A DNA stretch of 41,786 nucleotides from a virus: the IMG/VR virus record IMGVR_UViG_3300022818_000088, positions 1 to 41,786 of that record. One strand, given 5' to 3'. A program made the position numbers and the translations under genes. Shown here one piece after another: positions 1 through 41,786 of this stretch (its first letter is position 1; each line of letters opens with the position of its first letter). A model generated the notes under the pieces. That model saw only the letters and a list, made by a program, of their open reading frames with translations. It searched no databases and had not been told where the DNA came from.

Positions 1-91
1 ATGGCGTAGGAATTGGAAACGGTTTGAGTGTGTCGCACGGTCGGGGCATTCACATCAATCGAACGCAAGCCCGCTTGCACTAATGCGTAAA
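1..91. repeat. Terminal direct repeat, left copy (circular-assembly overlap)
   Basis: Bases 1-91 are identical to 41696-41786. A gene reading leftward off position 1 continues in frame at 41695, so the repeat marks a circular (or circularly permuted/concatemeric) molecule of 41,695 bp. The exact 91-base length suggests an assembler k-mer overlap rather than a biological terminal repeat (inference). Confidence 0.95.
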
Positions 92-5694: not shown

Positions 5695-7935
5695 TTATGT
5701 CTTGCCTACTTTCGGGTTGCTGCGCACCCAGACCGGCCCCAGGGTAAGCGCATTCGGATGCCTTTCCCGCACTGCCCGCATCACCGGCTCGTGCTGCGCG
5801 TCGTGTCCTGCCAGCCAACCATCCGGCTTTAGTTTCGGTTCCCAGGAAGCCAGGTCGCGCTTCACACTGTCGTAATCGTGGGCAGCATCCACAAAACAAA
5901 ATGCAAGCGAGTTGTCGGCCACACGACCGGCCATCTCCGCACTGTCCCCCTCGAGTACCTCAATCATATCCCCCACCCCGCACCGCTTCACGTTCGCCTC
6001 AAATGCCCCCCGGATACTTCCGCCGGCGGCAGCCACCGCGGTCACATGCGCGGGTTGATCCAACTCGCCCGTAAAACTGTCCACTGCATAAAGCTTCACC
6101 CGCTTGCCTTGAGCCTTAAGCATCTGGGCCAAGTGAATAATGCTGCGCCCGAACCAAACGCCAATCTCTGCCACCGTGTCCCCGTCCTTTAACGCGCCGG
6201 CCACGAATTCATAGAACTCCCAGAAGTTATAGAAGCCGGGGACGAAGGACCAGTCGTTTCCGGATTGCAGCCGGGTAAGGATAGCCTGCCCCTTGGCGTA
6301 TTGTTCCGGGGCATTCTGAGCCGTGTAGGTAGCGTCCAATTTCTTCCCGGTCTTGATAGGATGCTCGTGAGAAAACTTCAAGTCTCTCGCCTCAGTTACC
6401 ATGCCACGCTTGTAGGCTAACTCGGTAAACCAGTTGTCAGAGAAAACCCCTGTAAACTCAGGATGGAACAGGAAGTAATCAATTGCCCAATACGCCTTTG
6501 TGCAAATGGCCATGCACAACAGCGGATCGGTTCTGACCCCGTCGCTCACCGCCAAGACCTTGGGCTTTGTAACGTCGCCAATCCTTTCTAAGATGAGCTT
6601 ATCCCATTGCGGCATGGGCAGCCAATCGTCTGACAGTTGGACAATGACAGGAGCATCGGTTTTGAATGCGCCTTTGTTCCATGCGGCCACGCAACCGCCC
6701 CCGGTTGGAATGCAAAGGTGGTGCATTCTGCTCAGTGGTGCACTGGCCTTATCGTCTTGATCGAAAACAAAAACGTGTTCGATTTGGTCTGGCCTGTCGG
6801 CCATATCCAGCCAAATCTTTCTCGCCATTGCCGCTTGCTCATAACGCCCGCGTGTAGCGTGAATCAGGGAAATCTTTGGACCGCCCGCTTTCCTCATGCT
6901 TTCAATGCGCACCGACTCAGCCTCTTCCATCCGATTATTGGCTCGTAGGGCTTGGGCAAATATGTCTTCCCCGACCCACCCATAAACGGCCTCCCGACTG
7001 TTCCACGGTGTGAAGGAAGGCAACGGTGTCGCCCGCATTTGCCGGGCGTAGGCAAGGCCATCCTCGACTTGATTGGAATTCAGAGCATCATTGGCCAGCA
7101 GCAGCAGCGCCTCGCGCCGGGTCGGGTCGGCGGCGTAGGCAGCATGTAGCAGCGGCGTCTTTTGCTCCGGCTCGCTGGCGGTATGCTGCGCCAGGTTGAT
7201 GTAGATTTCGTACTTCTCAGGTCGCCCAATGTCTTTTGATCCCAACGCCTTTTTCGCCGCATTCACGCTTCCGGCAACGTCCTTTGCTAGCCCGAGTTCC
7301 TGGTGCAAGTGATACCACAGGCCGCAGGTCATTTCCTTTTCCGGGATGCTCCGCAGGATACGCAGGTTGCGCCCGTTGCTTTCCTGCTTCTTGAGATCGG
7401 GAAGGTGAGTCACCACCACACGATTGTCTTCGATTGCTTGGGGTGGTTTGATGTGGAAATCGAAACATTCATGCACCGGGAATAGCCACTTGCCGGAGCC
7501 GCGCAGTAGCATACGCTCGCGCGGAACCATGATGCCTTTGCCGAAAATGCGATAGGGAAACACGAAGGCAGCATATCCGCCCCGCTCCGCATGTTGTCGC
7601 ACGATCTCTGCACCACTTTCGAGTATGTCATCTGAATCGCACCAGAAACAATATTCGCCGTGGGCCAGATCAAAGCTTTTCTGCCGGGCGGAAGCGAAGC
7701 TGTCAATGTGCGGCCAGTCCTTATGGTAATTCAAGTATTCCCCTACAATGAGCGGCTTCCCATTTTCCTTGCACCACTTCTCTGCGATGGAAATGGTTTT
7801 GTCTGGCTTGTTCTTTCCAATCGCCCGGACCATCACTATCTCATCTCCGATTGCGGAAAAGGACTTGATACACCTTTCTATGTACTCTTCGACGTTTCCG
7901 ACAATCATGCACAGACTGATTTTTATCTCGCTCAT
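5695..7935 (-). CDS. Multidomain glycosyltransferase-glycosyltransferase-methyltransferase
   Basis: A 746-aa fusion. Residues 1 to about 220 form a GT2-like domain (SEIKISLCMIVGNVEEYIER; EYCFWCDSDDILESG with the DXD at about 100-102). Residues about 230-345 are helical and TPR-like (LLHAAYAADPTRREALLLLA). Residues about 355-540 form a second GT-like domain (KISLIHATRGRYEQAAMARK). Residues about 575-746 form a class I SAM methyltransferase of the Methyltransf_24 type (DTVAEIGVWFGRSI; SLAFCFVDAAHDYDSVK). The ATG at 7935 lies directly after a terminator-like stem and lacks an obvious Shine-Dalgarno; the extra 25 residues of the open frame above it cover that stem. It probably builds and methylates a short glycan on a virion or host surface component. 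Confidence 0.85.
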   Translation of the reverse strand: MSEIKISLCMIVGNVEEYIERCIKSFSAIGDEIVMVRAIGKNKPDKTISIAEKWCKENGKPLIVGEYLNYHKDWPHIDSFASARQKSFDLAHGEYCFWCDSDDILESGAEIVRQHAERGGYAAFVFPYRIFGKGIMVPRERMLLRGSGKWLFPVHECFDFHIKPPQAIEDNRVVVTHLPDLKKQESNGRNLRILRSIPEKEMTCGLWYHLHQELGLAKDVAGSVNAAKKALGSKDIGRPEKYEIYINLAQHTASEPEQKTPLLHAAYAADPTRREALLLLANDALNSNQVEDGLAYARQMRATPLPSFTPWNSREAVYGWVGEDIFAQALRANNRMEEAESVRIESMRKAGGPKISLIHATRGRYEQAAMARKIWLDMADRPDQIEHVFVFDQDDKASAPLSRMHHLCIPTGGGCVAAWNKGAFKTDAPVIVQLSDDWLPMPQWDKLILERIGDVTKPKVLAVSDGVRTDPLLCMAICTKAYWAIDYFLFHPEFTGVFSDNWFTELAYKRGMVTEARDLKFSHEHPIKTGKKLDATYTAQNAPEQYAKGQAILTRLQSGNDWSFVPGFYNFWEFYEFVAGALKDGDTVAEIGVWFGRSIIHLAQMLKAQGKRVKLYAVDSFTGELDQPAHVTAVAAAGGSIRGAFEANVKRCGVGDMIEVLEGDSAEMAGRVADNSLAFCFVDAAHDYDSVKRDLASWEPKLKPDGWLAGHDAQHEPVMRAVRERHPNALTLGPVWVRSNPKVGKT

Positions 7936-7971
7936 AAAACAAAAGGCTCGCCGCGATTGGAACGGCGAGCC
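7936..7971 (-). terminator. Intrinsic terminator-like hairpin upstream of the glycan cassette
   Basis: Perfect 9-bp arms (7945-7953 and 7963-7971) with a 9-nt loop. Read leftward, the stem is followed by TTTTGTTTT that ends at the ATG of the fusion glycosyltransferase. It would terminate or attenuate transcripts coming from the capsid genes, so the downstream cassette and tail genes must depend on read-through, antitermination or a local promoter. Confidence 0.75.
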
Positions 7972-8053
7972 ATACCCGGCCAAGTTAAAGAAAAGGGGCG
8001 GGCCAATCACTCCGCCCCATTGGTTAGATTGTGTTTATGGGAACACTTTGATT

Positions 8054-31174: not shown

Positions 31175-31188
31175 AACTAAAGGAAAAC

Positions 31189-31548
31189 ATGAAATTTAAT
31201 AAAACTCTGATATTGGTGGCTGTTGCCTACAACTTGTTAGGCACGGTCGGGTGTGAAAAGTGGCAGGCAAAACCTTCTTGGCCGAAATTGACTGAGCAGG
31301 GCATCACGAATACCTCCAACGATTTCAGCACTGCCTTCAACGATTTCAGAACTAATGTAATCCTCACTCAACCACCGCCGACATCATTACTGGAAATTAC
31401 ATCAACGGATAAACTTGTGATGTCTGTAGATTGTCCATTTTGGACTCTTGACGCATGTCCGGCCCCCACCAACGCAAATGATGTGGTGATTAAACTCACT
31501 ACTGCCGACGGTAAAAAGTGGATATGCAAATGGGAGGAAGCCAAGTGA
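31189..31548 (+). CDS. Early lipoprotein
   Basis: A 119-aa protein. MKFNKTLILVAVAYNLLGTV followed by GC is a signal sequence with a lipobox-like end (LGTVGC). The start at 31189 has AGGA 8 nt upstream. Mature part is Thr/Asp-rich with one Cys pair-like CPFW and CPAPT. A phage-made early lipoprotein could modify the cell surface or block superinfection (inference). Confidence 0.6.
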   Translation: MKFNKTLILVAVAYNLLGTVGCEKWQAKPSWPKLTEQGITNTSNDFSTAFNDFRTNVILTQPPPTSLLEITSTDKLVMSVDCPFWTLDACPAPTNANDVVIKLTTADGKKWICKWEEAK

Positions 31549-31570: not shown

Positions 31571-31801
31571 ATGAAGCTTCCACCCTGTGACCATGATGGA
31601 TGCGGTCCAATAGGCTGCCGGCGCAGTGGGGAATTCGGCGGCGTGTGGACCGCGACGGGAGAGCGCATAAGTGACGGGGTGAAGGTCATCGAGGCAACGC
31701 ATACCAACGGATACCCGTCCGATTTACCATGGTGGGAGTGGCAAACCATGCCGCCGTACATAAAGCCGTCCGGCCCACCAGAACCGGACGGACCACTATG
31801 A
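31571..31801 (+). CDS. CDHxGC-motif microprotein
   Basis: A 76-aa protein beginning MKLPPCDHDGCGPIGCRRSG. Paralogue of the N-terminus at 25859. The rest (FGGVWTATGERISDG; WWEWQTMPPYIKP) is Trp-rich. ATGA overlap with the PP-loop gene. Zinc-binding is likely, function unknown. Confidence 0.6.
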   Translation: MKLPPCDHDGCGPIGCRRSGEFGGVWTATGERISDGVKVIEATHTNGYPSDLPWWEWQTMPPYIKPSGPPEPDGPL

Positions 31802-32586
31802 ATGAAGTTGCCCTGTCGAACGTAATCTCATTCTCTGGTGGGGTGTGCAGTTTCTGGACTGCGGCTCGCGTGGTTGCACGTTACGGTAAGGAAAATGTGA
31901 CGTTGCTCTTTGCGGATACGAAGATGGAAGACGAGGACCTCTACCGATTCTGCCGGGACGCAACACAATACCTGGATGTGCCGCTGACAACCATCGCGGA
32001 CGGCAGGTCTCCGTGGCAGGTATTCGGCGACGAAGGCATGATGGGCAACAGCAAAGTGGACCTGTGCTCGCGCATCCTCAAACGCGAACTGTTAGACAAA
32101 TGGACTCGCGCGCACTGCCTAGAGATGACCAGCACGCTCTACGTCGGAATAGACTGGACTGAGGAACATCGGCTGACCCGCCTCCGATTGCGTAAGCACG
32201 GCTGGCGCATAGAAGCGCCCATGTGCGAGCCGCCGCTGTGGGACAAGTGCCGAATGCTCGCGGAACTGCGGGCAATCGGTATCGAGCCGCCCAGGCTCTA
32301 CAAGCTGGGATTCCCTCACAACAACTGCGGAGGATTTTGTATAAAGGCGGGGCAGGCGAACTTCGCGCACCTCCTGAGAGTGATGCCGGAACGGTATGCA
32401 TATCACGAGGCTCAGGAGGAAGCGATGCGTCTCCGGCTTGGCGACGTTTCCATAATGAAAGACCGGCGCAACAAGACTACGGCAACCCTGACAATGAAAC
32501 AACTCCGAGAACGCATCGAACGGGGAGAATCTTTTGACCGTTTTGAGTGGGGAGGTTGTGGATGCGCCATAGATTCTCCCGACTAA
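31798..32586 (+). CDS. PP-loop ATPase, PAPS reductase/adenylating family
   Basis: A 262-aa protein. VISFSGGVCSFWTA (about 9-22) is the PP-loop (SGG) motif that binds ATP to adenylate substrates. Conserved-looking cysteines at DLCSRIL (about 90), HNNCGGFCIKAG (Cys177, Cys181) and GGCGCA (254, 256) could hold an iron-sulfur cluster or carry sulfur. Relatives act in sulfate reduction, tRNA thiolation and DNA phosphorothioation; this one cannot be assigned. The ATG at 31798 overlaps the upstream stop; it closes the early operon before the convergent terminator. Confidence 0.8.
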   Translation: MNEVALSNVISFSGGVCSFWTAARVVARYGKENVTLLFADTKMEDEDLYRFCRDATQYLDVPLTTIADGRSPWQVFGDEGMMGNSKVDLCSRILKRELLDKWTRAHCLEMTSTLYVGIDWTEEHRLTRLRLRKHGWRIEAPMCEPPLWDKCRMLAELRAIGIEPPRLYKLGFPHNNCGGFCIKAGQANFAHLLRVMPERYAYHEAQEEAMRLRLGDVSIMKDRRNKTTATLTMKQLRERIERGESFDRFEWGGCGCAIDSPD

Positions 32587-32588
32587 AA

Positions 32589-32616
32589 GCCGGTGGCGCC
32601 ACCAGACGCCACCGGC
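32589..32616. terminator. Bidirectional terminator between convergent operons
   Basis: GCCGGTGGCG (32589-32598) and CGCCACCGGC (32607-32616) form a 10-bp stem with an 8-nt loop, 2 nt after the PP-loop stop. On the minus strand it is followed by TTTTAG. It would end both early and late transcripts. Confidence 0.7.
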
Positions 32617-32660
32617 CCCCATGAAAAGGCTGCCGCATAAAGCCCCGGCAGCAAGGCAGA

Positions 32661-32771
32661 TCAAGCAGGGGTGCCCTGAATGCAACTGACCAGGAACCAG
32701 GCAAGGAACAGCAGGAGGATGATCATCGCCGCCGTGCTCGCCAAGCTGGTTCTATCCCAAGGATTTCTCAC
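32661..32771 (-). CDS. 36-aa mini-lipoprotein, lysis-cassette end
   Basis: Found on the minus strand after the caspase-like gene: MRNPWDRTSLASTAAMIILL, then LFLAWFLVSC, ending CIQGTPA. A hydrophobic helix with an LVSC lipobox leaves a mature peptide of only 7 residues. The GTG start at 32769-32771 overlaps the caspase stop as GTGA. Size and form recall bacteriocin-release lipoproteins and Rz1-like outer spanins. Below usual gene-calling length. Confidence 0.55.
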   Translation of the reverse strand: MRNPWDRTSLASTAAMIILLLFLAWFLVSCIQGTPA

Positions 32772-33580
32772 GTAATTAAGTCGTCCACTATCGAGGCCCC
32801 GGCCCCCAGGACGTTAAGCACCGGATGCTGCGGAGCAAAGGTTTGGACCACCGCCGCAGTTTCCAAGAGCCAACTTTGACGGGTCAGCAGTTTTCCCTGA
32901 GCCTTCGCCTGCTGCCAGACTCCCAAGAGCGTCCCCATGAATACCCCGTTGTGCGGGCCGTCGCCGGCCGTCTCGTCTTTCGTGCACGCGCAGAGTTGCA
33001 GGATTGCGGCTTGGATGTCGCCAGACTTTTCACTGGTCGGCGGAGTGGCCACCACCCATTTCGGAGCGACCTTGGGCGTGAACCGCTGTCGGTCTCGACC
33101 CATGCCCTGGGAAAAGCAGGTATCTAGGACGTACATGACCTTGACGCCTTCCGGCCACCCGCACATGAGCGAGTGAAACTCCACGTCGGTTAAGGTGCCA
33201 TCTGCAAAGCACATGCTCTCGTTGTTTCCGTAGAACGGAGCCATGTATTGCGAGCCGTGGCCGCTGTTGCCGATCAAAAATTCATCACCGGGCTTTGCAG
33301 CCATCTGCAATTCAGAGTGCGCATTTCGCCAGGCCGCTCTGGTGCAGTCCAGGGTCATAACCCAAGGTGCCCCAGGTGCCGGCGGCCCACCGACGTTCCA
33401 CCCGCTGAATATCGCCCTCGAGTCGTAGCCCATGTTGCTCGCGCACTGGGCCAGACCGCGGGCGTCAGGGATGCAGCCAGCGAGAAGGCCGGACCAGCCG
33501 CCGGCTGGGTTGGCGTCGGGGTTGTATTCGGGTGCGAACTGGTCAACCGCGTTCTGCCCGAACGTCACGCAAGCCCTCAC
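32768..33580 (-). CDS. Caspase/metacaspase-fold cysteine protease
   Basis: A 270-aa protein. The GTG at 33580 overlaps the upstream stop as GTGA; the longer frame from 33670 lies inside the neighbour. Metacaspase p20 features occur in order: LLAGCIPDARGLAQCASNMG (about 32-51), then FLIGNSGHGSQ with catalytic His108, then VMYVLDTCFSQGM with catalytic Cys155, and later ACTKDETAGDGP and FMGTLL (about 198-219), matching the strand-helix end of the fold. Metacaspases usually cleave after Arg/Lys. No signal peptide. It sits last but one in the lysis-like cassette; function in lysis, host killing or protease interference is inferred. Confidence 0.85.
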   Translation of the reverse strand: MRACVTFGQNAVDQFAPEYNPDANPAGGWSGLLAGCIPDARGLAQCASNMGYDSRAIFSGWNVGGPPAPGAPWVMTLDCTRAAWRNAHSELQMAAKPGDEFLIGNSGHGSQYMAPFYGNNESMCFADGTLTDVEFHSLMCGWPEGVKVMYVLDTCFSQGMGRDRQRFTPKVAPKWVVATPPTSEKSGDIQAAILQLCACTKDETAGDGPHNGVFMGTLLGVWQQAKAQGKLLTRQSWLLETAAVVQTFAPQHPVLNVLGAGASIVDDLIT

Positions 33581-33903
33581 TTGTGCACCCCCGGTAGAAC
33601 CGCACCATGCGCCAGAGCCAGCACCAGGGCATTGCGCCTGGCGTCTGTGGCCACGGAGTCGTAAACCCATAGCATTGGGCCTCCCGTGGCACCCGACGCT
33701 GCCAGGGCGCTGGAAACGTCAGCAGGCGGCATCGCCTTGAACTCAATGGTTACGCCGGCAGTGATTTCCCCGGTGGCGGGAGTGTAACCACCAGTAGCGG
33801 ATATGCTTTGGACTGACTTGCAACCCGTTGTGCACGAAACCAGTGCCGCCGCCGGGATAACCAGGGCAACGATTACTGGCAATATGAAGAGTAGTCTTTT
33901 CAT
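33577..33903 (-). CDS. Lysis-cassette lipoprotein B
   Basis: A 108-aa protein. MKRLLFILPVIVALVIPAAA followed by LVSC is a type II signal; a second Cys pair (TTGC) follows. The mature part is 80 residues of Gly/Ala/Thr. ATGA overlap upstream and GTGA overlap with the caspase-like gene. Could be an outer-membrane spanin-type component or a surface protein. Confidence 0.65.
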   Translation of the reverse strand: MKRLLFILPVIVALVIPAAALVSCTTGCKSVQSISATGGYTPATGEITAGVTIEFKAMPPADVSSALAASGATGGPMLWVYDSVATDARRNALVLALAHGAVLPGVHK

Positions 33904-34268
33904 GGCTTTAGCTTGGGAATGACGGCAGAACCCGTCGCGTTGGTGCCGACCATCACGTCACCAGAAAACACGCTCTCTTGAGCGTCGGTGGAAATGGGGT
34001 CATAGGCGTTCTGCTTGCCGGCGTAGGCCGAGCCAAACCGCGGCGCGTAGATAGGGCCGTTGGTTGAGGTCGGTATCATGGTGATGGTTTCCCGCACGAC
34101 ACCCAATTTCACGTCAGGCAGGATGGTTCCACTGACTGGGGAGGTGGTTGTCAGCTTGATGCCGACAATCCACGAGGTTTGGCTGATGATCTTGTTCGAG
34201 TTGAGGGCCGTCTGGCAGCCGCACAACATGAGGACTGCCGCCAGAGCCGCTATGGTTTTGTTTTTCAT
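33900..34268 (-). CDS. Lysis-cassette lipoprotein A
   Basis: A 122-aa protein starting MKNKTIAALAAVLMLCGCQT, with an LCGC lipobox at about 15-18. I chose the ATG at 34268, because it directly precedes the signal and lies 8 nt after the previous stop; a longer frame to 34316 would overlap. Mature part is Ser/Thr/Pro-rich. Outer-membrane location expected. Function unknown. Confidence 0.7.
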   Translation of the reverse strand: MKNKTIAALAAVLMLCGCQTALNSNKIISQTSWIVGIKLTTTSPVSGTILPDVKLGVVRETITMIPTSTNGPIYAPRFGSAYAGKQNAYDPISTDAQESVFSGDVMVGTNATGSAVIPKLKP

Positions 34269-34275
34269 AAATAGT

Positions 34276-34539
34276 TCAGTGAATGAAGCAGTTTGAGAAC
34301 ATGGTCGCGACCGCATTCCAGGATACCACTACCCCATGGCCAGTCGAGTCGAACGGTTTAGCTTTTGGCCACACGCTCACTTCGCAGGCGTCCCCGGGAG
34401 AATCTGTCACGAGAGCCTCGACCATCGCGGACGGCCCGCTGATGAGGAAGTTTGGAGCGAAGGCCAGGAGTTGACCTTGCTTGCCGTCATAGGGAGTTAC
34501 CCCCGTTTTTTTCACCCGTAGTGTGATTTGCTTTGTCAT
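34276..34539 (-). CDS. Small beta-rich protein, unknown
   Basis: An 87-aa protein beginning MTKQITLRVKKTGVTPYDGK, with a strand-rich pattern (AFAPNFLISGPSAMVEALVT) and a C-terminal Cys-His (SNCFIH). No signal peptide. Located between holin-like and lipoprotein genes. Confidence 0.55.
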   Translation of the reverse strand: MTKQITLRVKKTGVTPYDGKQGQLLAFAPNFLISGPSAMVEALVTDSPGDACEVSVWPKAKPFDSTGHGVVVSWNAVATMFSNCFIH

Positions 34540-34550
34540 GCGTTTTCTTT

Positions 34551-34883
34551 CTATTGGCCTGGTTTTATTTCGGCTGGCGGTGCGGCCGGGACCGTTGCCG
34601 GTTCGTTCTTCGTCTGTACCGTAACCGTTTCACTGCGTAAAGTCGAGCCCTCTCCGCTTGTTTTCATCTCGATCTTGTAATCGCTAAAGGACTGCGACAG
34701 GAACGCGAGCATCTGGGTTGCCGCGCCGACAAAACAGCCCGCGCCAATCACCACCCAATTGACAAGCGGGGGCCAGTGCCCAGAGTCCATCCACTGGCCG
34801 AGGCCGGTAGCCAACGGAGCCATGCCGCCGATCACCGTGAAGCATACGCCCTTCGTGATGATTATTGCCGTCTCGATTTTCAC
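34551..34883 (-). CDS. Holin-like membrane protein
   Basis: A 110-aa protein with two hydrophobic segments (IIITKGVCFTVIGGMAPLAT, about 7-26; PLVNWVVIGAGCFVGAATQM, about 39-58) and a soluble charged tail (NEPATVPAAPPAEIKPGQ). Two-helix proteins of this size are typical class II holins, which permeabilise the inner membrane. Its position in the cassette supports this, but no family match is certain. Confidence 0.6.
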   Translation of the reverse strand: MKIETAIIITKGVCFTVIGGMAPLATGLGQWMDSGHWPPLVNWVVIGAGCFVGAATQMLAFLSQSFSDYKIEMKTSGEGSTLRSETVTVQTKNEPATVPAAPPAEIKPGQ

Positions 34884-35080
34884 AGTTTAGGCACGTTCTT
34901 GAGGTAGTCCCTCAGTTCCGCTCGCAGTTCATACCATGCAGAACACTTTTCGGCAGGTCTCCGCCAATCTTCTGATGCCAGTGCTACCATGTCCAGAGCG
35001 CCAAGGCATCGTCTAAGCAGCCTTTCTTCGAGCGTTGTCACGCGCTTGTATCTCAACCATCGTTGAATGAAGCCCATCAT
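34880..35080 (-). CDS. Small basic helical protein, lysis region
   Basis: A 66-aa protein starting at an ATG (35080) that overlaps the upstream stop as ATGA. Basic helical segments (FIQRWLRYKRVTTLEERLLR) precede an acidic end (LRAELRDYLKNVPKL). Unknown; perhaps an antiholin or cassette accessory. Confidence 0.5.
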   Translation of the reverse strand: MMGFIQRWLRYKRVTTLEERLLRRCLGALDMVALASEDWRRPAEKCSAWYELRAELRDYLKNVPKL

Positions 35081-35511
35081 GTGCCAGTTTTGAAAAGGTG
35101 CCATACCAGAAGTCCAGTTTCAAGCGTCAATATACCAATCCCGATACTGATTAGGATATTCAACGCCCCGCGCGACCCTTCCAATACTGACATGCGCTGA
35201 TCTCTAGTTTTACCGTTGTCTTTCACTTCCTCGATTGACTTTTCAATGGAAACAATTCCAAGCTCAATCCTGATGATGGTTTCATGGTCAGTGCCGGTCT
35301 TTTCATCCACCACTTTGGCGCTTACTGCAGCGGCGGCGGACACAACCCTGGCGGCGTCGGCGGCTGCCGCAGTCAAGACCCTGACGGCATCCGCAGCCGA
35401 TTGGACGATTACTTTGGACGCGCTATCTGCCGCGTTGGAGATTACCCTTAGCCCTTCGTCGGCGGCATCTTTCAAGTCGTCTCGATCTTTAGTGGTTCTG
35501 TTTGGTGCCAT
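35077..35511 (-). CDS. XhlA-like coiled-coil membrane protein
   Basis: A 144-aa protein. Residues about 15-75 are an Ala/Val-rich heptad-like coiled coil with repeated AADA/AAA units (SAADAVRVLTAAAADAARVV). After KSIEEVKDNGKTRDQRMSVL comes the C-terminal hydrophobic helix (ALNILISIGIGILTLETGLL), ending in a short basic tail. This is the hemolysin XhlA/holin-accessory architecture. First gene of the lysis-like cassette. Confidence 0.6.
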   Translation of the reverse strand: MAPNRTTKDRDDLKDAADEGLRVISNAADSASKVIVQSAADAVRVLTAAAADAARVVSAAAAVSAKVVDEKTGTDHETIIRIELGIVSIEKSIEEVKDNGKTRDQRMSVLEGSRGALNILISIGIGILTLETGLLVWHLFKTGT

Positions 35512-35541
35512 TGTGTTCTTTCTGATTGGTTTGTCACCCGA

Positions 35542-36948
35542 TCACGGTCGCCAGTTAATGAGTTGCAACGGTCCCCCGTTTGTAGGCGCGAAGGTTTTCC
35601 CAAACTGATAGTCATTGATCTGACCAAAAAGAAACGACACCGTATTGGACTTGATCTGTTCAGGGTCGGGATTCAGCGCCCAGTTGGGTGAATATGTGTT
35701 GCTGAGATAGAACTTTGTCCATGTCTCAAAGTTGTCACTCGACTTGTAGCAGACGATGCCGGGCATTTCTCCAGGGAAATTGTTGGGCAGCACTACGTAA
35801 CTGGTGCCATTAACTGAAACAATAGATGGGTAAGGATACGGATTCAGATTGTTGATGCTGCGGTCGTTCGATGAAATGGCGAAGTTGGCAGTCCATGCGA
35901 ATCGGTTAAGCGTGAGTTGATGCTCAGTTACGCTATTCCCGGTTGAGTTTTCCATGACAAATAGGTTCCACTGGTTACCAAGGCGAGTATAGGCAACCTG
36001 TGCCACCCCATTGGAAGTCAAACAGAAATCACATTGTACGTTGAAATCTCGACCTGAAAGCGCAGGAGTTACATTCCCAATGTTGAGTGGATAACTGAGC
36101 AAGGAACCATCGAAATTGTAGATGTTTCCATCAGTGGCGAACTTGAATAAATACTGATTTGTCCCAATAGTTTTGAGAGACAACGACCACCATAGGTTTC
36201 CCGACGAATCGAACTTCGGAAGCCCGTTCAAGTACTGTGAGGACGTTGGTGTATTTAATCCATTCCAAACAACACAGGTGGCATCCACCCACTTCGACGG
36301 CTGAGCCCAGGCAGTAGTGGTCGTGTTGTATTGATACATTATCTGATCCGATGTGCCAGAATCCCCCTTCCGAAAGGTTAAATATAGTTCCCCTGCATTG
36401 TCTTTGAACAAGAACGGATAAGTGGACCTGGTTTCTATTAAAGAACTCACCAAGGGGTAGATTAGTCCCGTCCAGTTGGTGACCTCGTATGGAAACGAAG
36501 TGCGAATGTAAAGGAGGTTGGTGGCGTGTGCCCCATAGAAGCAATGACCGAAACCAGTCTTGTCGAACTCAAGTGACGCGATCTTGTGCTCATCATCGTT
36601 GTTGTTGTACGGAAGCTGGAGAAGATAAAGGAGGTTGGTGGTCGTTGTGATCGTGGTTATACCACTAGATAAGTCCTTATCCGTGAAGCAAAGGTGCAAG
36701 TTGGTATTGTAGTAAACCCCGTATTGATGAGTTCCTGCGGTACAAAGCTGGTTCTTGGCGATGCTGATTCCATTCAAGCCGCTCGCCGTATAGGCGTTTA
36801 GGATGGCGGGATTTGTGTCAGCCAACCATAGCAGCGACGGCGGATTAGTCGTAGTTCCACCGACTCCAGACAATGAACCTAAACCGCTAAGGGTCTGGCC
36901 TAGGCAGGAGACGGCCAGGAATAGATAGATAATCGGCATTAATTTCAT
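35542..36948 (-). CDS. Secreted BNR_4-type beta-propeller (sialidase/lyase-like)
   Basis: A 468-aa protein. MKLMPIIYLFLAVSCLGQTL is a Sec signal with a possible lipobox (AVSC). The rest matches BNR_4: DEHKIASLEFDKTGFGHCFY, STYPFLFKDNAGELYLTFRK with GDSGTSDQIMYQYN, then LPKFDSSGNLWWSLSLK. The family includes polysaccharide-lyase-like propellers and sialidase-fold proteins. No catalytic residues can be assigned by eye. ATGA overlap with the YadA-like gene. A virion depolymerase or a secreted glycan-binding protein are both possible. Confidence 0.75.
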   Translation of the reverse strand: MKLMPIIYLFLAVSCLGQTLSGLGSLSGVGGTTTNPPSLLWLADTNPAILNAYTASGLNGISIAKNQLCTAGTHQYGVYYNTNLHLCFTDKDLSSGITTITTTTNLLYLLQLPYNNNDDEHKIASLEFDKTGFGHCFYGAHATNLLYIRTSFPYEVTNWTGLIYPLVSSLIETRSTYPFLFKDNAGELYLTFRKGDSGTSDQIMYQYNTTTTAWAQPSKWVDATCVVWNGLNTPTSSQYLNGLPKFDSSGNLWWSLSLKTIGTNQYLFKFATDGNIYNFDGSLLSYPLNIGNVTPALSGRDFNVQCDFCLTSNGVAQVAYTRLGNQWNLFVMENSTGNSVTEHQLTLNRFAWTANFAISSNDRSINNLNPYPYPSIVSVNGTSYVVLPNNFPGEMPGIVCYKSSDNFETWTKFYLSNTYSPNWALNPDPEQIKSNTVSFLFGQINDYQFGKTFAPTNGGPLQLINWRP

Positions 36949-39419
36949 GGGGCTAGTTTTACCGCTGTGTTGCTTGCCGATCCATCTGCGGTGTAACTGT
37001 AGTAAAGGAACGTATTGGAAACCCAGGTTGCGCCATTCCCTGCTCCAATCTGCGCTGGTGTAGGGGCCGACGGTTGGTTCGTCATGATCACTGCACTGGC
37101 CCGGATTGATATATTGGCGCTGTCGTTACCGTTCCTAAACGATACCGTTGGCGAATTGGTCGGGTTCTCAACCTTGATGTATGGCCAGTCTTCTGTCGTC
37201 TTTCCTAGAAATAGTCCCAATGCTCCGCTTAAATCACTCAATAACAGTTGCAACGTACCATTGGTCGGGCTGAACAGTTGAGATTTAGCCTGCCAATAAT
37301 ACGGCGCCCCACCAGCAACGCGGATACCAGATCCGCCTGACGCATAGACATTTGCACATCCAAAGTTGCCATTGTTGTCCCCATACATAGGATACAACGT
37401 TCCGGTGGCGAATGCGGAATTGGAAACCGAACCCACAAGTTGTAGCTGCCACGCTGGATTAGCTGAAGTTCCCTGTTGCGGAACCAGCACCCATCCCGCC
37501 CCTATCGGCATCGAGGTTGAATTACCACTCCTGAACCCCTGACCGTACTGAGCAATGAACGGACTATACTGCTGCCCATTTAAGACTGCTGGCTGTCCAT
37601 TCGATGAAACAAACGACGGCACAAACGTAGCACCCAGTCCGTCCACCTGTAATTGTTCGTCCTGACCATACACTTTATGGAAGTAATTGGACGATCCAGT
37701 GGCAGAGACGTTTCCCAACACCGCCAGGTTAGTGGATACGACAAGATTAGTTCCTGTGCCAGTGAGATTCAGTTGAGGAGTACTCACTGGATTGCTGAAG
37801 GTGTTTGTGCCGGTGAAGGCATTCGTGCCGTTCAACAGAGCCACATTCCCCGACAACCTCGCATCCGGCACCGTGCCGCTCGCCAGCGCCGAGGCGGAGA
37901 GGCTTGCGACCAGTGTGCCCGGAACATTCACCGTTCCCGATGCAGTGCCCAGCATCACCTGGTTGGTGTCGGTTGTGGCCGAGTTATGACCAATGGCCGT
38001 CGAGTTTGGGTGAGAAGCCGTTGCGGAAAGACCCAGCGCTATACTATTAGATTCGCCTGCGTATGTGTAACCTCCAAGGGCCAAAGAGCCATACCCACTC
38101 GCAGTTCCACGGCCAAGCGCTATAGAATACTTTGCTGTTGCAAAAGTTAAGCGCCCCAGTCCTACAGATTCCTCACCCGTTGCCTTCGCGCCAGTCCCAA
38201 TCGCTAATGACGAAAACCCGGAAGCGGTACTGGAATAGCCGAGCGCTATAGAATCATTCGAACTAGCATGGGCATAAGCACCACCAGCAAACGTATATTT
38301 ATCTGACGCTATAGCATCTCGACCAATGGCCGTGCCTTCGTAACCAGCGGCTACAGCTCCAGAACCAAAGACCGCGCCTCCCACACCAACGGATGCATTA
38401 GCGCCAAAAACAGTGGCATTTGTTGCATCATTCAAAAAGGTTGCGCCGGCACCAAATTTCTCGCTGTTCGTTCCAACCCCAGGAGAAGAGAAAACGCCGC
38501 TGAACCCGGTGTCCTCTTTCATTACGGCTTTCGCGGTCGCCGGGTTCGTGCCTGTGTAAATCTGACCGGGTGTGCCATTGGTGGTGAAGATGCTGAGACT
38601 TTTTGCCGATAAATTACCAACAGCATCGGCCATGACATTCCCATCATGATAGTAATGATTCCCATCCTGGTCGACGAAGAGGCCACCCGAATGGTATTCA
38701 AGATTGCCGAGGGCATCGGCAAAGACATTCCCGTCACCGAAATACCACCGCCCGTCTATATCCGCAAGGGGCTCTCCGTTGGGGTAGTACAGAGTAGCGA
38801 CACCGGCCAAATTACTGCCATTGCCGTACCGATACAGGTTTGCGGTGACATTGCTGAGCGTTGCCGATCCCCCGTTCGTCACTCCGCCAACCGCGGCCAC
38901 GTCCACCGCGGTCAGTACCGCTGCCGCATTCGTCCGGCCCTGGAAACTCACCATACCACCTGCACCTCCATCAATGTAAGTCACCGCGCCGGCGGTGTGA
39001 AAGGTCATGTTGCTCCCCGCTTTCAGAGACCATGTCGAGTAGGCCGGGACGCTCGATCCCGCGCAGATAAATGCCGGTCGCACCAGGTTAGTCGCATTCA
39101 CCAGGCCGGTGTCGGTCTCGGCAATTGAAAACCAGTTCGTCGTTGTGGTGTACGTTCCCCGGAATTCCCCACGGTAATCACCCCACACGAGATTTGACAC
39201 CGTCACGCTGCCATTTGTCCCGATTGCGCGATAGAGCCGGTCGCGGGTTGTCAGGCCCAGAGGATTAACGGCCCGAATGCACTCAGGATAAAGAAAGAAG
39301 TCCCGCCCGCCCTGGGGCGCCAGGGCGGAGTTGTAGAAATCAAACTGCACATTCACCGCCGCGCGAGCGGGCGAGAGCATGGCCAGACCAAAACAGAGCA
39401 GCAGAATTATGCGGTTCAT
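36945..39419 (-). CDS. YadA-head-like fibre/adhesin with signal peptide
   Basis: An 824-aa protein. MNRIILLLCFGLAMLSPARA is an AxA-type signal peptide. Residues about 60-200 are strand-rich and Asn/Thr-rich. Residues about 221-270 hold two copies of DGxxYF/YYxDGNVxADAxGNL. Residues about 330-500 hold YadA-head (Hep_Hag) repeats of the form SxALGxxxxAxGxxS (SIALGYSSTASGFSSLAIGT; SVGLGRLTFATAKYSIALGR). The C-terminus contains LLLSDLSGALGLFLG and Trp-rich strands. Trimeric beta-roll fibres use this module for adhesion. The signal peptide is highly unusual for a phage tail fibre. Confidence 0.75.
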   Translation of the reverse strand: MNRIILLLCFGLAMLSPARAAVNVQFDFYNSALAPQGGRDFFLYPECIRAVNPLGLTTRDRLYRAIGTNGSVTVSNLVWGDYRGEFRGTYTTTTNWFSIAETDTGLVNATNLVRPAFICAGSSVPAYSTWSLKAGSNMTFHTAGAVTYIDGGAGGMVSFQGRTNAAAVLTAVDVAAVGGVTNGGSATLSNVTANLYRYGNGSNLAGVATLYYPNGEPLADIDGRWYFGDGNVFADALGNLEYHSGGLFVDQDGNHYYHDGNVMADAVGNLSAKSLSIFTTNGTPGQIYTGTNPATAKAVMKEDTGFSGVFSSPGVGTNSEKFGAGATFLNDATNATVFGANASVGVGGAVFGSGAVAAGYEGTAIGRDAIASDKYTFAGGAYAHASSNDSIALGYSSTASGFSSLAIGTGAKATGEESVGLGRLTFATAKYSIALGRGTASGYGSLALGGYTYAGESNSIALGLSATASHPNSTAIGHNSATTDTNQVMLGTASGTVNVPGTLVASLSASALASGTVPDARLSGNVALLNGTNAFTGTNTFSNPVSTPQLNLTGTGTNLVVSTNLAVLGNVSATGSSNYFHKVYGQDEQLQVDGLGATFVPSFVSSNGQPAVLNGQQYSPFIAQYGQGFRSGNSTSMPIGAGWVLVPQQGTSANPAWQLQLVGSVSNSAFATGTLYPMYGDNNGNFGCANVYASGGSGIRVAGGAPYYWQAKSQLFSPTNGTLQLLLSDLSGALGLFLGKTTEDWPYIKVENPTNSPTVSFRNGNDSANISIRASAVIMTNQPSAPTPAQIGAGNGATWVSNTFLYYSYTADGSASNTAVKLAP

Positions 39420-39449
39420 ACGATTCAGAAAGTGGGGTGCGTCAACAGG

Positions 39450-40178
39450 TTAGTGGTTTGTCCAGACGGGAGACCAGCCCATCGCGCTACCATCCGCGCT
39501 GTACACCTGCGCCCAAAAGCTCGGCGCGGTTACGCCGATGGTAACTCCGGTCGGCGCGGAGTTCGTCGGGAATCGGTAGGCAGCGGCCGCCAGCACACCC
39601 CACGCGTCAAAGGTTAGGCCGCCCGATGCCAGGAGTGCAGAACCGTCCAGGTAGAAATTGTTCCGCCCCTCATTCATGTGGGTTTCCCGCATGGTCACAT
39701 TGCCCACGGTATCCGCCTGGAATCCCCCGCCGGCGAAATAAATCGAACCGTCGGCATTCAGCCTTGCTGCCCCACTCGATGCGCTGACAGAGCCAGCCGT
39801 GTCAATCTGGTTCGTGAGTGTGGCGGGCATCGCGGTGATTCCAGAACCGAAAAGGAACTGGGCGAAGAGGCCAAACAGGTTGGTATTGAGGGTATTCGTG
39901 CTGACGTATTCCGCAATGAGCCGCAAGTTGTGGTTTGCCGCCTGCCACGCCATCCAGGTGTTGACCCCGTGGGCATAGTTCGTGCCCCTGGCCCAGTTGA
40001 CGTAGTTGGTCCCGCCATCCCACCAGGCCGGCAGGTTGGTGCGCGAGTAATCAGTCGAGTTTGTGGGGTTGACGGCCCAGGGGATAGTCACCAGATTCGA
40101 CAAGTTTCCGCTTAGGTTAGTTTGCGCCCGTGCCGTAAGGCCGCAGAGCAAAGCTGCAATGATGATAAGTGTTCGCAT
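39450..40178 (-). CDS. Secreted protein related to the YadA-like neighbour
   Basis: A 242-aa protein. MRTLIIIAALLCGLTARAQT is a clear Sec signal (ARA cleavage site). Asn/Thr-rich body (TNPTNSTDYSRTNLPAWWDG region). It contains DGSIYFAGGGFQADTVGNVT, the same motif as in the 824-aa neighbour (DGxxYFxxGxxxADxxGN). Likely a paralogous partner fibre or secreted protein. The 31-nt gap to the next gene shows no terminator. Confidence 0.65.
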   Translation of the reverse strand: MRTLIIIAALLCGLTARAQTNLSGNLSNLVTIPWAVNPTNSTDYSRTNLPAWWDGGTNYVNWARGTNYAHGVNTWMAWQAANHNLRLIAEYVSTNTLNTNLFGLFAQFLFGSGITAMPATLTNQIDTAGSVSASSGAARLNADGSIYFAGGGFQADTVGNVTMRETHMNEGRNNFYLDGSALLASGGLTFDAWGVLAAAAYRFPTNSAPTGVTIGVTAPSFWAQVYSADGSAMGWSPVWTNH

Positions 40179-40182
40179 AAAA

Positions 40183-40896
40183 TTAAGCTGTTGATAATGG
40201 AAGATCGTCAGTTGAAAGTCCTTCGTTGCCGGAACTTAGTGTCTCCGGTGGCGGGAAGTCTGAAAGAACCTTTCCCGGCCAAAATATGCAAACGCTACAA
40301 CCTTCGATGCTGGCGTCTGCCTCTGGCGCAATTAGTTCTAGAGACGAGCCGGGCGCAATCGTGACAAGAGATGCGCTGTCCGGTGGAGTGATTAATAAAC
40401 GAGAATCCCCCGGCACTACGATGCCATTGAGATAGCCCGCATCAAGCGGCCATGACCTTGTGTGGTAGTATGCCAACACACCGGAAAGCGGGCAGTACAC
40501 CTTTGCCTTTATGCCCATTCCCATACTGTAAAATCGTCCGTCCATCACGTATTCCGCAGGAGCACCCCACGACCATACCTTTGGATTCGCCGGAATACCA
40601 TCGCACCACGGAACGGAACTTGTAATCTTCCCTCCTGAAATGGTAAGCGTACCAGTGTCTCTGGTTGGCCCGTAACTGGGATTTATTTCAAAGGAATCCC
40701 CCGCGTAATAGCCAGGCAATATTCCAGTTGGATAACTGAACCCGTTCAAGTCTGGGGCACCATGTGGCCACGTCGGCCCAGAATAATTGTCAATCACCTG
40801 CACGTACAAAAGAGAACCGCCACCAGCGCCGCGCTGCCAGTCTGGCGCTCTTACCTGTTGCCAGTCCTGCCCCCTTGTGAGCTTGTAGGCTGGCAT
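40183..40896 (-). CDS. Tail-region protein, unknown
   Basis: A 237-aa protein beginning MPAYKLTRGQDWQQVRAPDW. Pro/Gly/Ser/Trp-rich with strand-like segments (GSSLELIAPEADASIEGCSV). Located between tail-tip-like genes and the signal-peptide fibre proteins. No signal peptide. Function not recognised. Confidence 0.6.
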   Translation of the reverse strand: MPAYKLTRGQDWQQVRAPDWQRGAGGGSLLYVQVIDNYSGPTWPHGAPDLNGFSYPTGILPGYYAGDSFEINPSYGPTRDTGTLTISGGKITSSVPWCDGIPANPKVWSWGAPAEYVMDGRFYSMGMGIKAKVYCPLSGVLAYYHTRSWPLDAGYLNGIVVPGDSRLLITPPDSASLVTIAPGSSLELIAPEADASIEGCSVCIFWPGKVLSDFPPPETLSSGNEGLSTDDLPLSTA

Positions 40897-40897
40897 G

Positions 40898-41452
40898 TTA
40901 CGCGGACGCCCATTGCCGCCCCGTTAGAGCAATCAGAGTTAACGAAACGTCATCAACCTTGACACCGGTATTAGAGCATGGCCAGACAGGAACGATGTCA
41001 GTATCTAAGAACGGCGGCGAAATGTATTCGGTGAGAACCGTTGTGCCCTTGGTTGAAGTCCTTTGCTGCGGGTCGGTATCAATATCGTCGGTGTAGTCGG
41101 TGAAGAACCATTCATCCCCATTGGGCATGATCTGACTGACGATGCCTGATTGTAGGTGCGGCTCCACGGCCACATTCACGTCGCCAGACCCGTCTTCTGC
41201 CGCGCCTGCTGGCCTGCAAACCAGATAATCTCCGTTGGCTGCGTCCTGATTGTAGGACACCACCAGCATAAACCTTACCCCCCCGCCGCCAGCCGCCGCT
41301 GGCTGTATCTCAAGTATGGTCCCCGCGCTGGTGCATTTGAGCTTGTAACCAACCCCGGGCAACACCCTGTTGGCATTCACCGCCGAAAGCAAACGCCGTA
41401 ACCAATTCGCTTGGCGACTATCTCCGGAAGGTGGATTCGGGGCATCGTTCAT
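40898..41452 (-). CDS. Tail-region protein, unknown
   Basis: A 184-aa protein. The ATG at 41452 overlaps the upstream stop (ATGA); the longer frame to 41503 lies in the neighbour. It begins MNDAPNPPSGDSRQANWLRR, has a Gly-rich turn (PAAAGGGGVRFMLVVSYNQD) and a strand-rich C-terminal half. Probably structural by position; no domain recognised. Confidence 0.6.
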   Translation of the reverse strand: MNDAPNPPSGDSRQANWLRRLLSAVNANRVLPGVGYKLKCTSAGTILEIQPAAAGGGGVRFMLVVSYNQDAANGDYLVCRPAGAAEDGSGDVNVAVEPHLQSGIVSQIMPNGDEWFFTDYTDDIDTDPQQRTSTKGTTVLTEYISPPFLDTDIVPVWPCSNTGVKVDDVSLTLIALTGRQWASA

Positions 41453-41786
41453 CAGTACTTCGCTTGGTACAGGAGCGGGCAAGGCCAGAGTCCATAAGTC
41501 CATTCTTGCACGATCTGCGTCTTTTGTCGCGCCGATAGGCGGATAGTCGGGTGCATTTTAAACCAGCCATAGATCAAGTTGGCCTTGGATGAAATGTCTG
41601 TTGGAAGGTTGAATAGCAAGTCCCCAGGCATCGCCTCATCTGAGATTAACTGGCCAGACGTGAAGATTCTCCCCACGTTTGTCAGTGAGGCTTTGATGGC
41701 GTAGGAATTGGAAACGGTTTGAGTGTGTCGCACGGTCGGGGCATTCACATCAATCGAACGCAAGCCCGCTTGCACTAATGCGTAAA
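41452..41786 (-). CDS. Distal tail protein-like gene, 3' part (spans the window ends)
   Basis: C-terminal continuation of the gene at 1-524. Bases 41696-41786 duplicate 1-91, so the non-redundant end of this part is 41695. It encodes the last 81 codons (including the stop), beginning near KASLTNVGRIFTSGQLISDE and ending LLYQAKY. Function as described for the 1-524 part. Confidence 0.75.
   Translation of the reverse strand, partial: YALVQAGLRSIDVNAPTVRHTQTVSNSYAIKASLTNVGRIFTSGQLISDEAMPGDLLFNLPTDISSKANLIYGWFKMHPTIRLSARQKTQIVQEWTYGLWPCPLLYQAKY
41696..41786. repeat. Terminal direct repeat, right copy
   Basis: Identical to bases 1-91; redundant sequence of a circularised assembly. Delete one copy to obtain the 41,695-bp circle. 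Confidence 0.95.

What the first reader, a model, noticed from the sequence alone, without database searches (positions are those of the whole stretch)
32661..32771. 36-residue mini-lipoprotein hidden behind the caspase-like gene
A GTGA overlap, a hydrophobic helix and an LVSC lipobox with a 7-residue mature peptide mark a lysis-type lipoprotein that common gene callers would drop (seen in sequence). Bacteriocin release proteins and Rz1 are tiny lipoproteins with lysis roles (established). The pair caspase plus mini-lipoprotein may form one unit (inference).
Basis: partly seen in the sequence, partly recalled or inferred. Interest (0 to 1): 0.75.

Follow-up and report, generated by a model that had tools for sequence, protein, structure and literature searches.

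The report
Tiny phage lipoprotein beside caspase gene
At the very end of a phage's late gene block, straight after a caspase-like protease gene, lies a 36-residue reading frame that looks like a real, tiny membrane-anchored lipoprotein; it may help burst the host cell, but nothing ties it specifically to the caspase.

Summary
A 36-aa frame (32661-32771, minus) starts with a GTG that overlaps the caspase stop by 4 nt. It carries one hydrophobic helix and an LVSC lipobox, leaving a 7-residue mature peptide (CIQGTPA). It is unlikely to be chance: strict lipobox-plus-helix frames occur twice in the window (this one and its operon neighbour) and never in 20 shuffles. Its start context matches this SD-poor genome, four other late-gene junctions use the same 4-nt overlap, and it fills the gap between the caspase and a hairpin with a T run. 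Codon usage is inconclusive.

The caspase is a GSU0716-type orthocaspase with its dyad intact. Terminase-related phages carry unrelated tiny lipoproteins late in their operons, one directly before an endolysin, and no caspase. None of eight viral caspase loci with readable downstream DNA has such a frame. Most likely it is a real late/lysis-stage lipoprotein that acts on the envelope, co-transcribed with the caspase but not its dedicated partner. It is too short for a spanin and matches no bacteriocin-release family.

The parts
32661..32771 (-). 36-aa predicted lipoprotein / single-helix peptide; Cys30 after LVS, mature part CIQGTPA
   Evidence: GTGA overlap with caspase stop
32768..33580 (-). 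caspase-like protease (270 aa, orthocaspase/GSU0716 type); GTG start overlaps the upstream gene by 4 nt; dyad His108/Cys155, Asp39 and Asp153 kept; no signal peptide
   Evidence: Pfam PF00656 E 2.5e-12; 3bij E 4.7e-15; alignment A7; model and Foldseek to 3bij E 9e-13
33577..33903 (-). 108-aa predicted lipoprotein, lipobox LVSC
   Evidence: 4-nt overlaps on both sides
33900..34268 (-). 122-aa predicted lipoprotein, lipobox LCGC, mature part looks beta-rich by eye
   Evidence: only signal-peptide-level matches
34276..34539 (-). 87-aa protein, unknown
34551..34883 (-). 110-aa protein with two hydrophobic segments, holin-like by topology only
   Evidence: no family match
34880..35104 (-). 74-aa protein, unknown
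35077..35511 (-). 144-aa protein, helical repeats plus C-terminal hydrophobic helix (XhlA-like architecture, no family match)
32629..32652 (-). hairpin GCTGCCG-N10-CGGCAGC followed by CTTTTC; candidate terminator 8 nt after the mini-ORF stop
   Evidence: sequence, folds; not significant against shuffles on this strand alone
32589..32616 (.). 10-bp hairpin between the convergent operons, candidate bidirectional terminator
   Evidence: (z -2.9 for the + strand)

Best explanation
The ORF is a real last gene of the phage's late operon, translated by coupling to the caspase stop codon. Its product is a minimal lipoprotein: Sec-inserted by its hydrophobic helix, lipidated and cleaved at Cys30, leaving a lipid-anchored heptapeptide (Ile at +2 predicts outer membrane if E. 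coli rules hold). Made late and in quantity, the precursor, released signal peptide and/or lipopeptide would load and weaken the host envelope at lysis. It is co-transcribed with the caspase but acts in another compartment, since the caspase has no export signal. Shown: the ORF, overlap, lipobox, operon position. Inferred: translation, lipidation, lysis role.
For: Lipoprotein signal well beyond chance. GTGA overlap is the operon's habit: 33577-33580, 33900-33903, 34880-34883 and 36945-36948 are also 4-nt overlaps. No SD is needed in this genome and the AT-rich context before its GTG matches other late genes. It fills the 115-nt gap between the caspase stop and a hairpin plus T run. The late operon ends here after fibre genes, an XhlA-like coiled-coil/TM protein, a 2-TM protein and two lipoproteins. 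Related phages carry unrelated small late lipoproteins: 32 aa in L102, 57 aa beside a TM protein in L101, 82 aa directly before an M15-type endolysin in L106. Phage lipoprotein genes are rare, and 196 o-spanin genes had gone unannotated (PMC6139136).
Against: No homologue anywhere searched, so no evidence of selection on the frame. Codon usage undecided. No recognised endolysin or holin was found in the genome, so the 'lysis end' rests on position and topology. The hairpin is not stronger than shuffles on the minus strand. The three related-phage lipoproteins are not homologous to this one.
Confidence: 0.42

Rival explanations
1. The ORF is real but the product is an uncleaved single-pass membrane peptide that brings the caspase to the membrane: a detached version of the C-terminal membrane anchor that other caspases carry fused. 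The cytoplasmic N-tail (MRNPWDRTSLASTAA) would contact the caspase.
For: Direct coupling to the caspase stop. The viral caspase L121 has a C-terminal hydrophobic anchor, and a caspase with a C-terminal TM helix is the commonest Cyanobacteria-specific metacaspase architecture (PMC3501461).
Against: The window caspase ends where homologues end, so it does not look truncated. A near-perfect lipobox is not needed for an anchor. No slippery heptamer seen at the junction (by eye). No such ORF at other viral caspases.
Confidence: 0.15
2. Caspase and mini-lipoprotein form one dedicated module: the caspase acts on cell proteins or on the peptide itself while the peptide permeabilises the envelope, replacing or timing the classical endolysin/spanin steps.
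For: No Pfam endolysin in the proteins tested. The caspase occupies the slot after a lipoprotein that an M15-type endolysin holds in L106. Another phage caspase lies between an XhlA-like gene and an M15 endolysin, overlapping the latter (L122).
Against: No co-occurrence of the two genes outside this genome: 0 of 8 readable viral caspase loci. In L113 the caspase lies after terminase and portal genes. Caspases cleave proteins, not peptidoglycan (established), and this one has no signal peptide.
Confidence: 0.1
3. The ORF is not translated; it is a chance open frame in the caspase 3' untranslated stretch before the terminator.
For: Very short, GTG start, no SD, no homologue, codon score within the range of wrong frames; 41% of xTGA starts in shuffled genome DNA open at least 30 codons.
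Against: A lipoprotein rule match after such a start occurs in only 0.2-1.5% of shuffles and the strict form in at most 0.01%; operon overlap habit; fits the gap exactly.
Confidence: 0.2
4. The ORF is a lipoprotein gene with a non-lysis role, such as superinfection exclusion or another envelope change during infection (as with Cor-type lipoproteins).
For: The phage carries further predicted lipoproteins (33577-33903, 33900-34268, 31183-31548); the 122-aa one has a weak, signal-peptide-only match to Cor.
Against: Late operon position with the lysis-like genes; a 7-residue mature part leaves little to block a receptor.
Confidence: 0.13

Closest known systems
Colicin lysis proteins / bacteriocin release proteins (Cxl, BRP)
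   Same: Very small lipoprotein, last gene of an operon, expected to be made at lysis; BRPs activate outer-membrane phospholipase A and cause quasi-lysis (PMC9517006)
   Different: No sequence match; mature part 7 residues, against roughly 27-33 (recalled); phage late operon, no colicin gene
o-spanins (lambda Rz1 and others)
   Same: Small phage lipoprotein at the lysis end of the late operon, often overlapping a neighbour and missed by gene callers
   Different: Mature Rz1 is 40 aa, proline-rich, and paired with an i-spanin; the shortest combined spanin periplasmic length reported is 62 residues (PMC6139136); 7 residues and no i-spanin candidate here
Tiny late lipoproteins of terminase-related phages (L101 57 aa, L102 32 aa, L106 82 aa)
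   Same: Short lipoproteins near fibre/holin-like/endolysin genes, some with 4-nt overlaps
   Different: No sequence similarity; longer mature parts; no caspase next to them
Orthocaspases of GSU0716 type (PF00656) and the other viral caspases L089, L090, L112, L113, L122
   Same: The neighbour gene belongs here by fold, dyad and sequence
   Different: 18-28% identity to the viral ones aligned; spacing from His to Cys motif 4 residues shorter than the canonical one; none has the mini-ORF

Membership tests
bacterial lipoprotein (signal peptidase II substrate) | Charged n-region, hydrophobic h-region, lipobox with Cys at 15-35 | tested here: met
   rule met at Cys30, strict LVSC; KD 2.62
bacterial lipoprotein (signal peptidase II substrate) | Lipidation and cleavage in the cell | not testable with these tools
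   needs palmitate labelling or globomycin
bacteriocin release / colicin lysis protein | Match to the family profile | tested here: not met
   0 Pfam families at E<=1 and 0 NCBIfam at 0.1; profiles are weak on such short queries
bacteriocin release / colicin lysis protein | Last gene of its operon, small lipoprotein | tested here: met
   followed by hairpins and a convergent gene
o-spanin (Rz1 type) | Mature domain long enough to reach an inner-membrane partner | tested here: not met
   7 residues here; Rz1 has 40 (PMC6139136)
o-spanin (Rz1 type) | Adjacent or overlapping i-spanin (N-terminal TM, periplasmic coiled coil) | tested here: not met
   no such protein among the eight operon-end genes 32661-35511; the coiled-coil protein has its TM at the C-terminus
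orthocaspase (neighbour gene) | PF00656 fold with His/Cys dyad | tested here: met
conserved caspase + mini-lipoprotein module | Both genes together in other phages | tested here: not met
   0 of 8 viral caspase loci with readable downstream DNA; all are distant homologues

The most novel reading that the evidence does not exclude
Phages use an orthocaspase in their lysis programme, and here it is paired with a minimal lipopeptide that breaches the envelope: a protease-plus-membrane-peptide exit module loosely analogous to caspase and gasdermin, in a phage with no recognisable endolysin or spanin.
Probability: 0.08. Interest if true: 0.88.

Novelty: new variant of a known kind. Interest (0 to 1): 0.42.

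Why it matters
If translated and lipidated, it would be an unusually short lipoprotein for a phage and would test how little mature sequence a lysis lipoprotein needs. The setting raises a broader testable question: why do unrelated phages keep orthocaspase genes, in one clear case overlapping an endolysin gene? It also shows that envelope-acting phage genes under 40 codons are easily missed.

Tried and rejected
Single-sequence scans of viral contigs with the caspase, terminase and holin-like protein found nothing. tblastn of the caspase and of the mini-protein against annotated phages found nothing. An alignment-based terminase scan found relatives at 21-30% identity, but 49 searched records hold no PF00656 match, and none of the operon-end genes except the caspase has a homologue among the fetched loci. 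A pattern with the window caspase's exact His-to-Cys spacing found nothing in viral contigs. The genome contigs pattern scan was INVALID: the pattern did not match the window itself, and the first genome scan with the single caspase found nothing, so bacterial homologues close to this caspase remain unsearched. The mini-ORF is too short for the search for related loci. A fusion of caspase and mini-ORF by frameshift was considered and rejected as the main reading: no slippery site seen by eye, and the caspase ends where its homologues end. Antisense ORF 32680-32775(+) rejected as a rival gene: lower codon score. The caspase structure model is modest (pLDDT 61), so only the fold match is used.

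Full report
Setting. The window is an IMG/VR virus record. Its first 91 bases are repeated at its end, so it is most likely a complete, circularly permuted genome of about 41.7 kb. Terminase, portal, head protease, major head protein and tape measure are recognisable. The terminase is distantly related to those of Verrucomicrobia phage P8625 and Akkermansia phage Moulinsart, which suggests, but does not prove, a Verrucomicrobiota host. The late genes run on the minus strand, through the joined ends, into fibre genes at 41.8-35.5 kb and end at about 32.66 kb, where a convergent PAPS-reductase gene (31801-32586, plus) ends.

The observation. The ORF at 32661-32771 (minus) is exactly as described: GTGA overlap, one strong hydrophobic helix, LVSC, seven residues from the cysteine to the end. 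Chance was tested in four ways. (a) The PROSITE-type lipoprotein rule is met by 9 of 555 window ORFs and by 3.2 of 651 in shuffles. (b) With a strict lipobox and hydrophobic h-region the window has two, this ORF and 33577-33903, and 20 shuffles have none. (c) After a fixed GTGA, shuffled local sequence gives the rule in 1.5% and the strict form in 0.01%. (d) After any xTGA in shuffled genomes the numbers are 0.17% and 0 (all). The strict form was chosen after seeing the ORF. Codon usage does not decide.

Operon evidence. Four other late junctions are 4-nt overlaps of the same type (33577-33580, 33900-33903, 34880-34883, 36945-36948). Late genes here mostly lack a Shine-Dalgarno and have AT-rich DNA before the start; the mini-ORF's TTAATTAC-GTG fits. 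Without the ORF there would be a 115-nt gap between the caspase stop and the hairpin at 32629-32652; the ORF fills it to within 8 nt. That hairpin is not unusually stable on the minus strand, while the pair of hairpins stands out when the plus strand is folded.

The neighbour. The 270-aa protein is a caspase-fold protease: PF00656 E 2.5e-12, nearest solved relative GSU0716 (3bij) by sequence and by predicted fold. His108, Cys155, Asp39 and Asp153 are invariant among the eight viral sequences aligned, so it is probably active and, as an orthocaspase, likely cuts after basic residues (PMC6426788 for the class, abstract). It has no hydrophobic segment and should stay in the cytoplasm.

Is the pair a unit? 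Twelve viral contigs with related caspases were found and nine were read. Eight show the DNA downstream of the caspase; L112 ends there. None carries a small lipoprotein after the caspase. Contexts vary. L122 has an XhlA-like protein (weak, E 0.005), then the caspase, then an M15 endolysin whose start overlaps the caspase stop. L112 has lipoprotein, small TM protein, lipoprotein, caspase. L090 is followed by proteins of unknown PHROG families. L113 has the caspase after terminase and portal. So a lysis-cassette location is firm in one case and suggestive in others, and the mini-lipoprotein is not part of a conserved pair. All these caspases are only 18-28% identical to the window's, so they do not test conservation within its own lineage.

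What related phages show. Among terminase-related phages, strict small lipoproteins turn up at the late-operon end: 32 aa in L102, overlapping a gene that PHROGs calls a tail assembly chaperone; 57 aa in L101, before a TM protein; 82 aa in L106, overlapping an endolysin gene. They are not homologous to this one. They show that such genes are a usual element of these operons without a caspase.

Mechanism. The best-supported reading is a late, envelope-acting minimal lipoprotein. With only seven mature residues it cannot work as an Rz1-type spanin, and it has no profile match to colicin lysis proteins; it may still work like the latter by loading the envelope with lipopeptide and signal peptide. 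A membrane anchor for the caspase is the most interesting ordinary rival, because L121 and some cyanobacterial caspases have a C-terminal membrane helix (PMC3501461). Each step beyond sequence is inference.

Limits. Decoy sequences for a more degenerate scan were generated in scripts but not used, because that would have meant made-up variants of a viral protein.

Noticed in passing
L122:4944-6938: Phage caspase (664 aa) interrupted by an intein (PF14890 E 8e-21, with an HNH_3 match E 5.6e-5) inserted exactly before the catalytic cysteine (ILDS|CLSGNT...VHN|CFSG); protein splicing would restore the active site. The gene overlaps an M15 endolysin gene by 4 nt.
   Followed up: partly
window 1-91 and 41696-41786: 91-bp direct terminal repeat: the record is probably a complete, circularly permuted genome; a late gene reads across the joint.
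   Followed up: yes
window 32661-41503: No Pfam endolysin was found among the operon-end genes or most other proteins of at least 100 aa that were tested; the lysis enzyme of this phage is unidentified, and P8625 likewise has none annotated.
   Followed up: partly
L116:1466-2305, L118:4662-5522, L120:4725-5354: A second group of phage caspases with an N-terminal amphipathic-looking stretch (MKLINAIIGFFKNLF) and CDDC motif; other caspase loci L115, L117 and L119 come from contigs over 400 kb.
   Followed up: no
L121:4788-5822: Viral caspase with a C-terminal hydrophobic membrane anchor.
   Followed up: no
window 31801-32586: PAPS-reductase-like gene convergent to the late operon, with a weak SspD match (PADLOC E 8e-9); P8625 also carries a PAPS-reductase family gene.
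   Followed up: no
window 5695-8010: 771-aa putative glycosyltransferase/methyltransferase inside the head-tail operon, 34% identical to genes in terminase-related phages L103 and L105.
   Followed up: no
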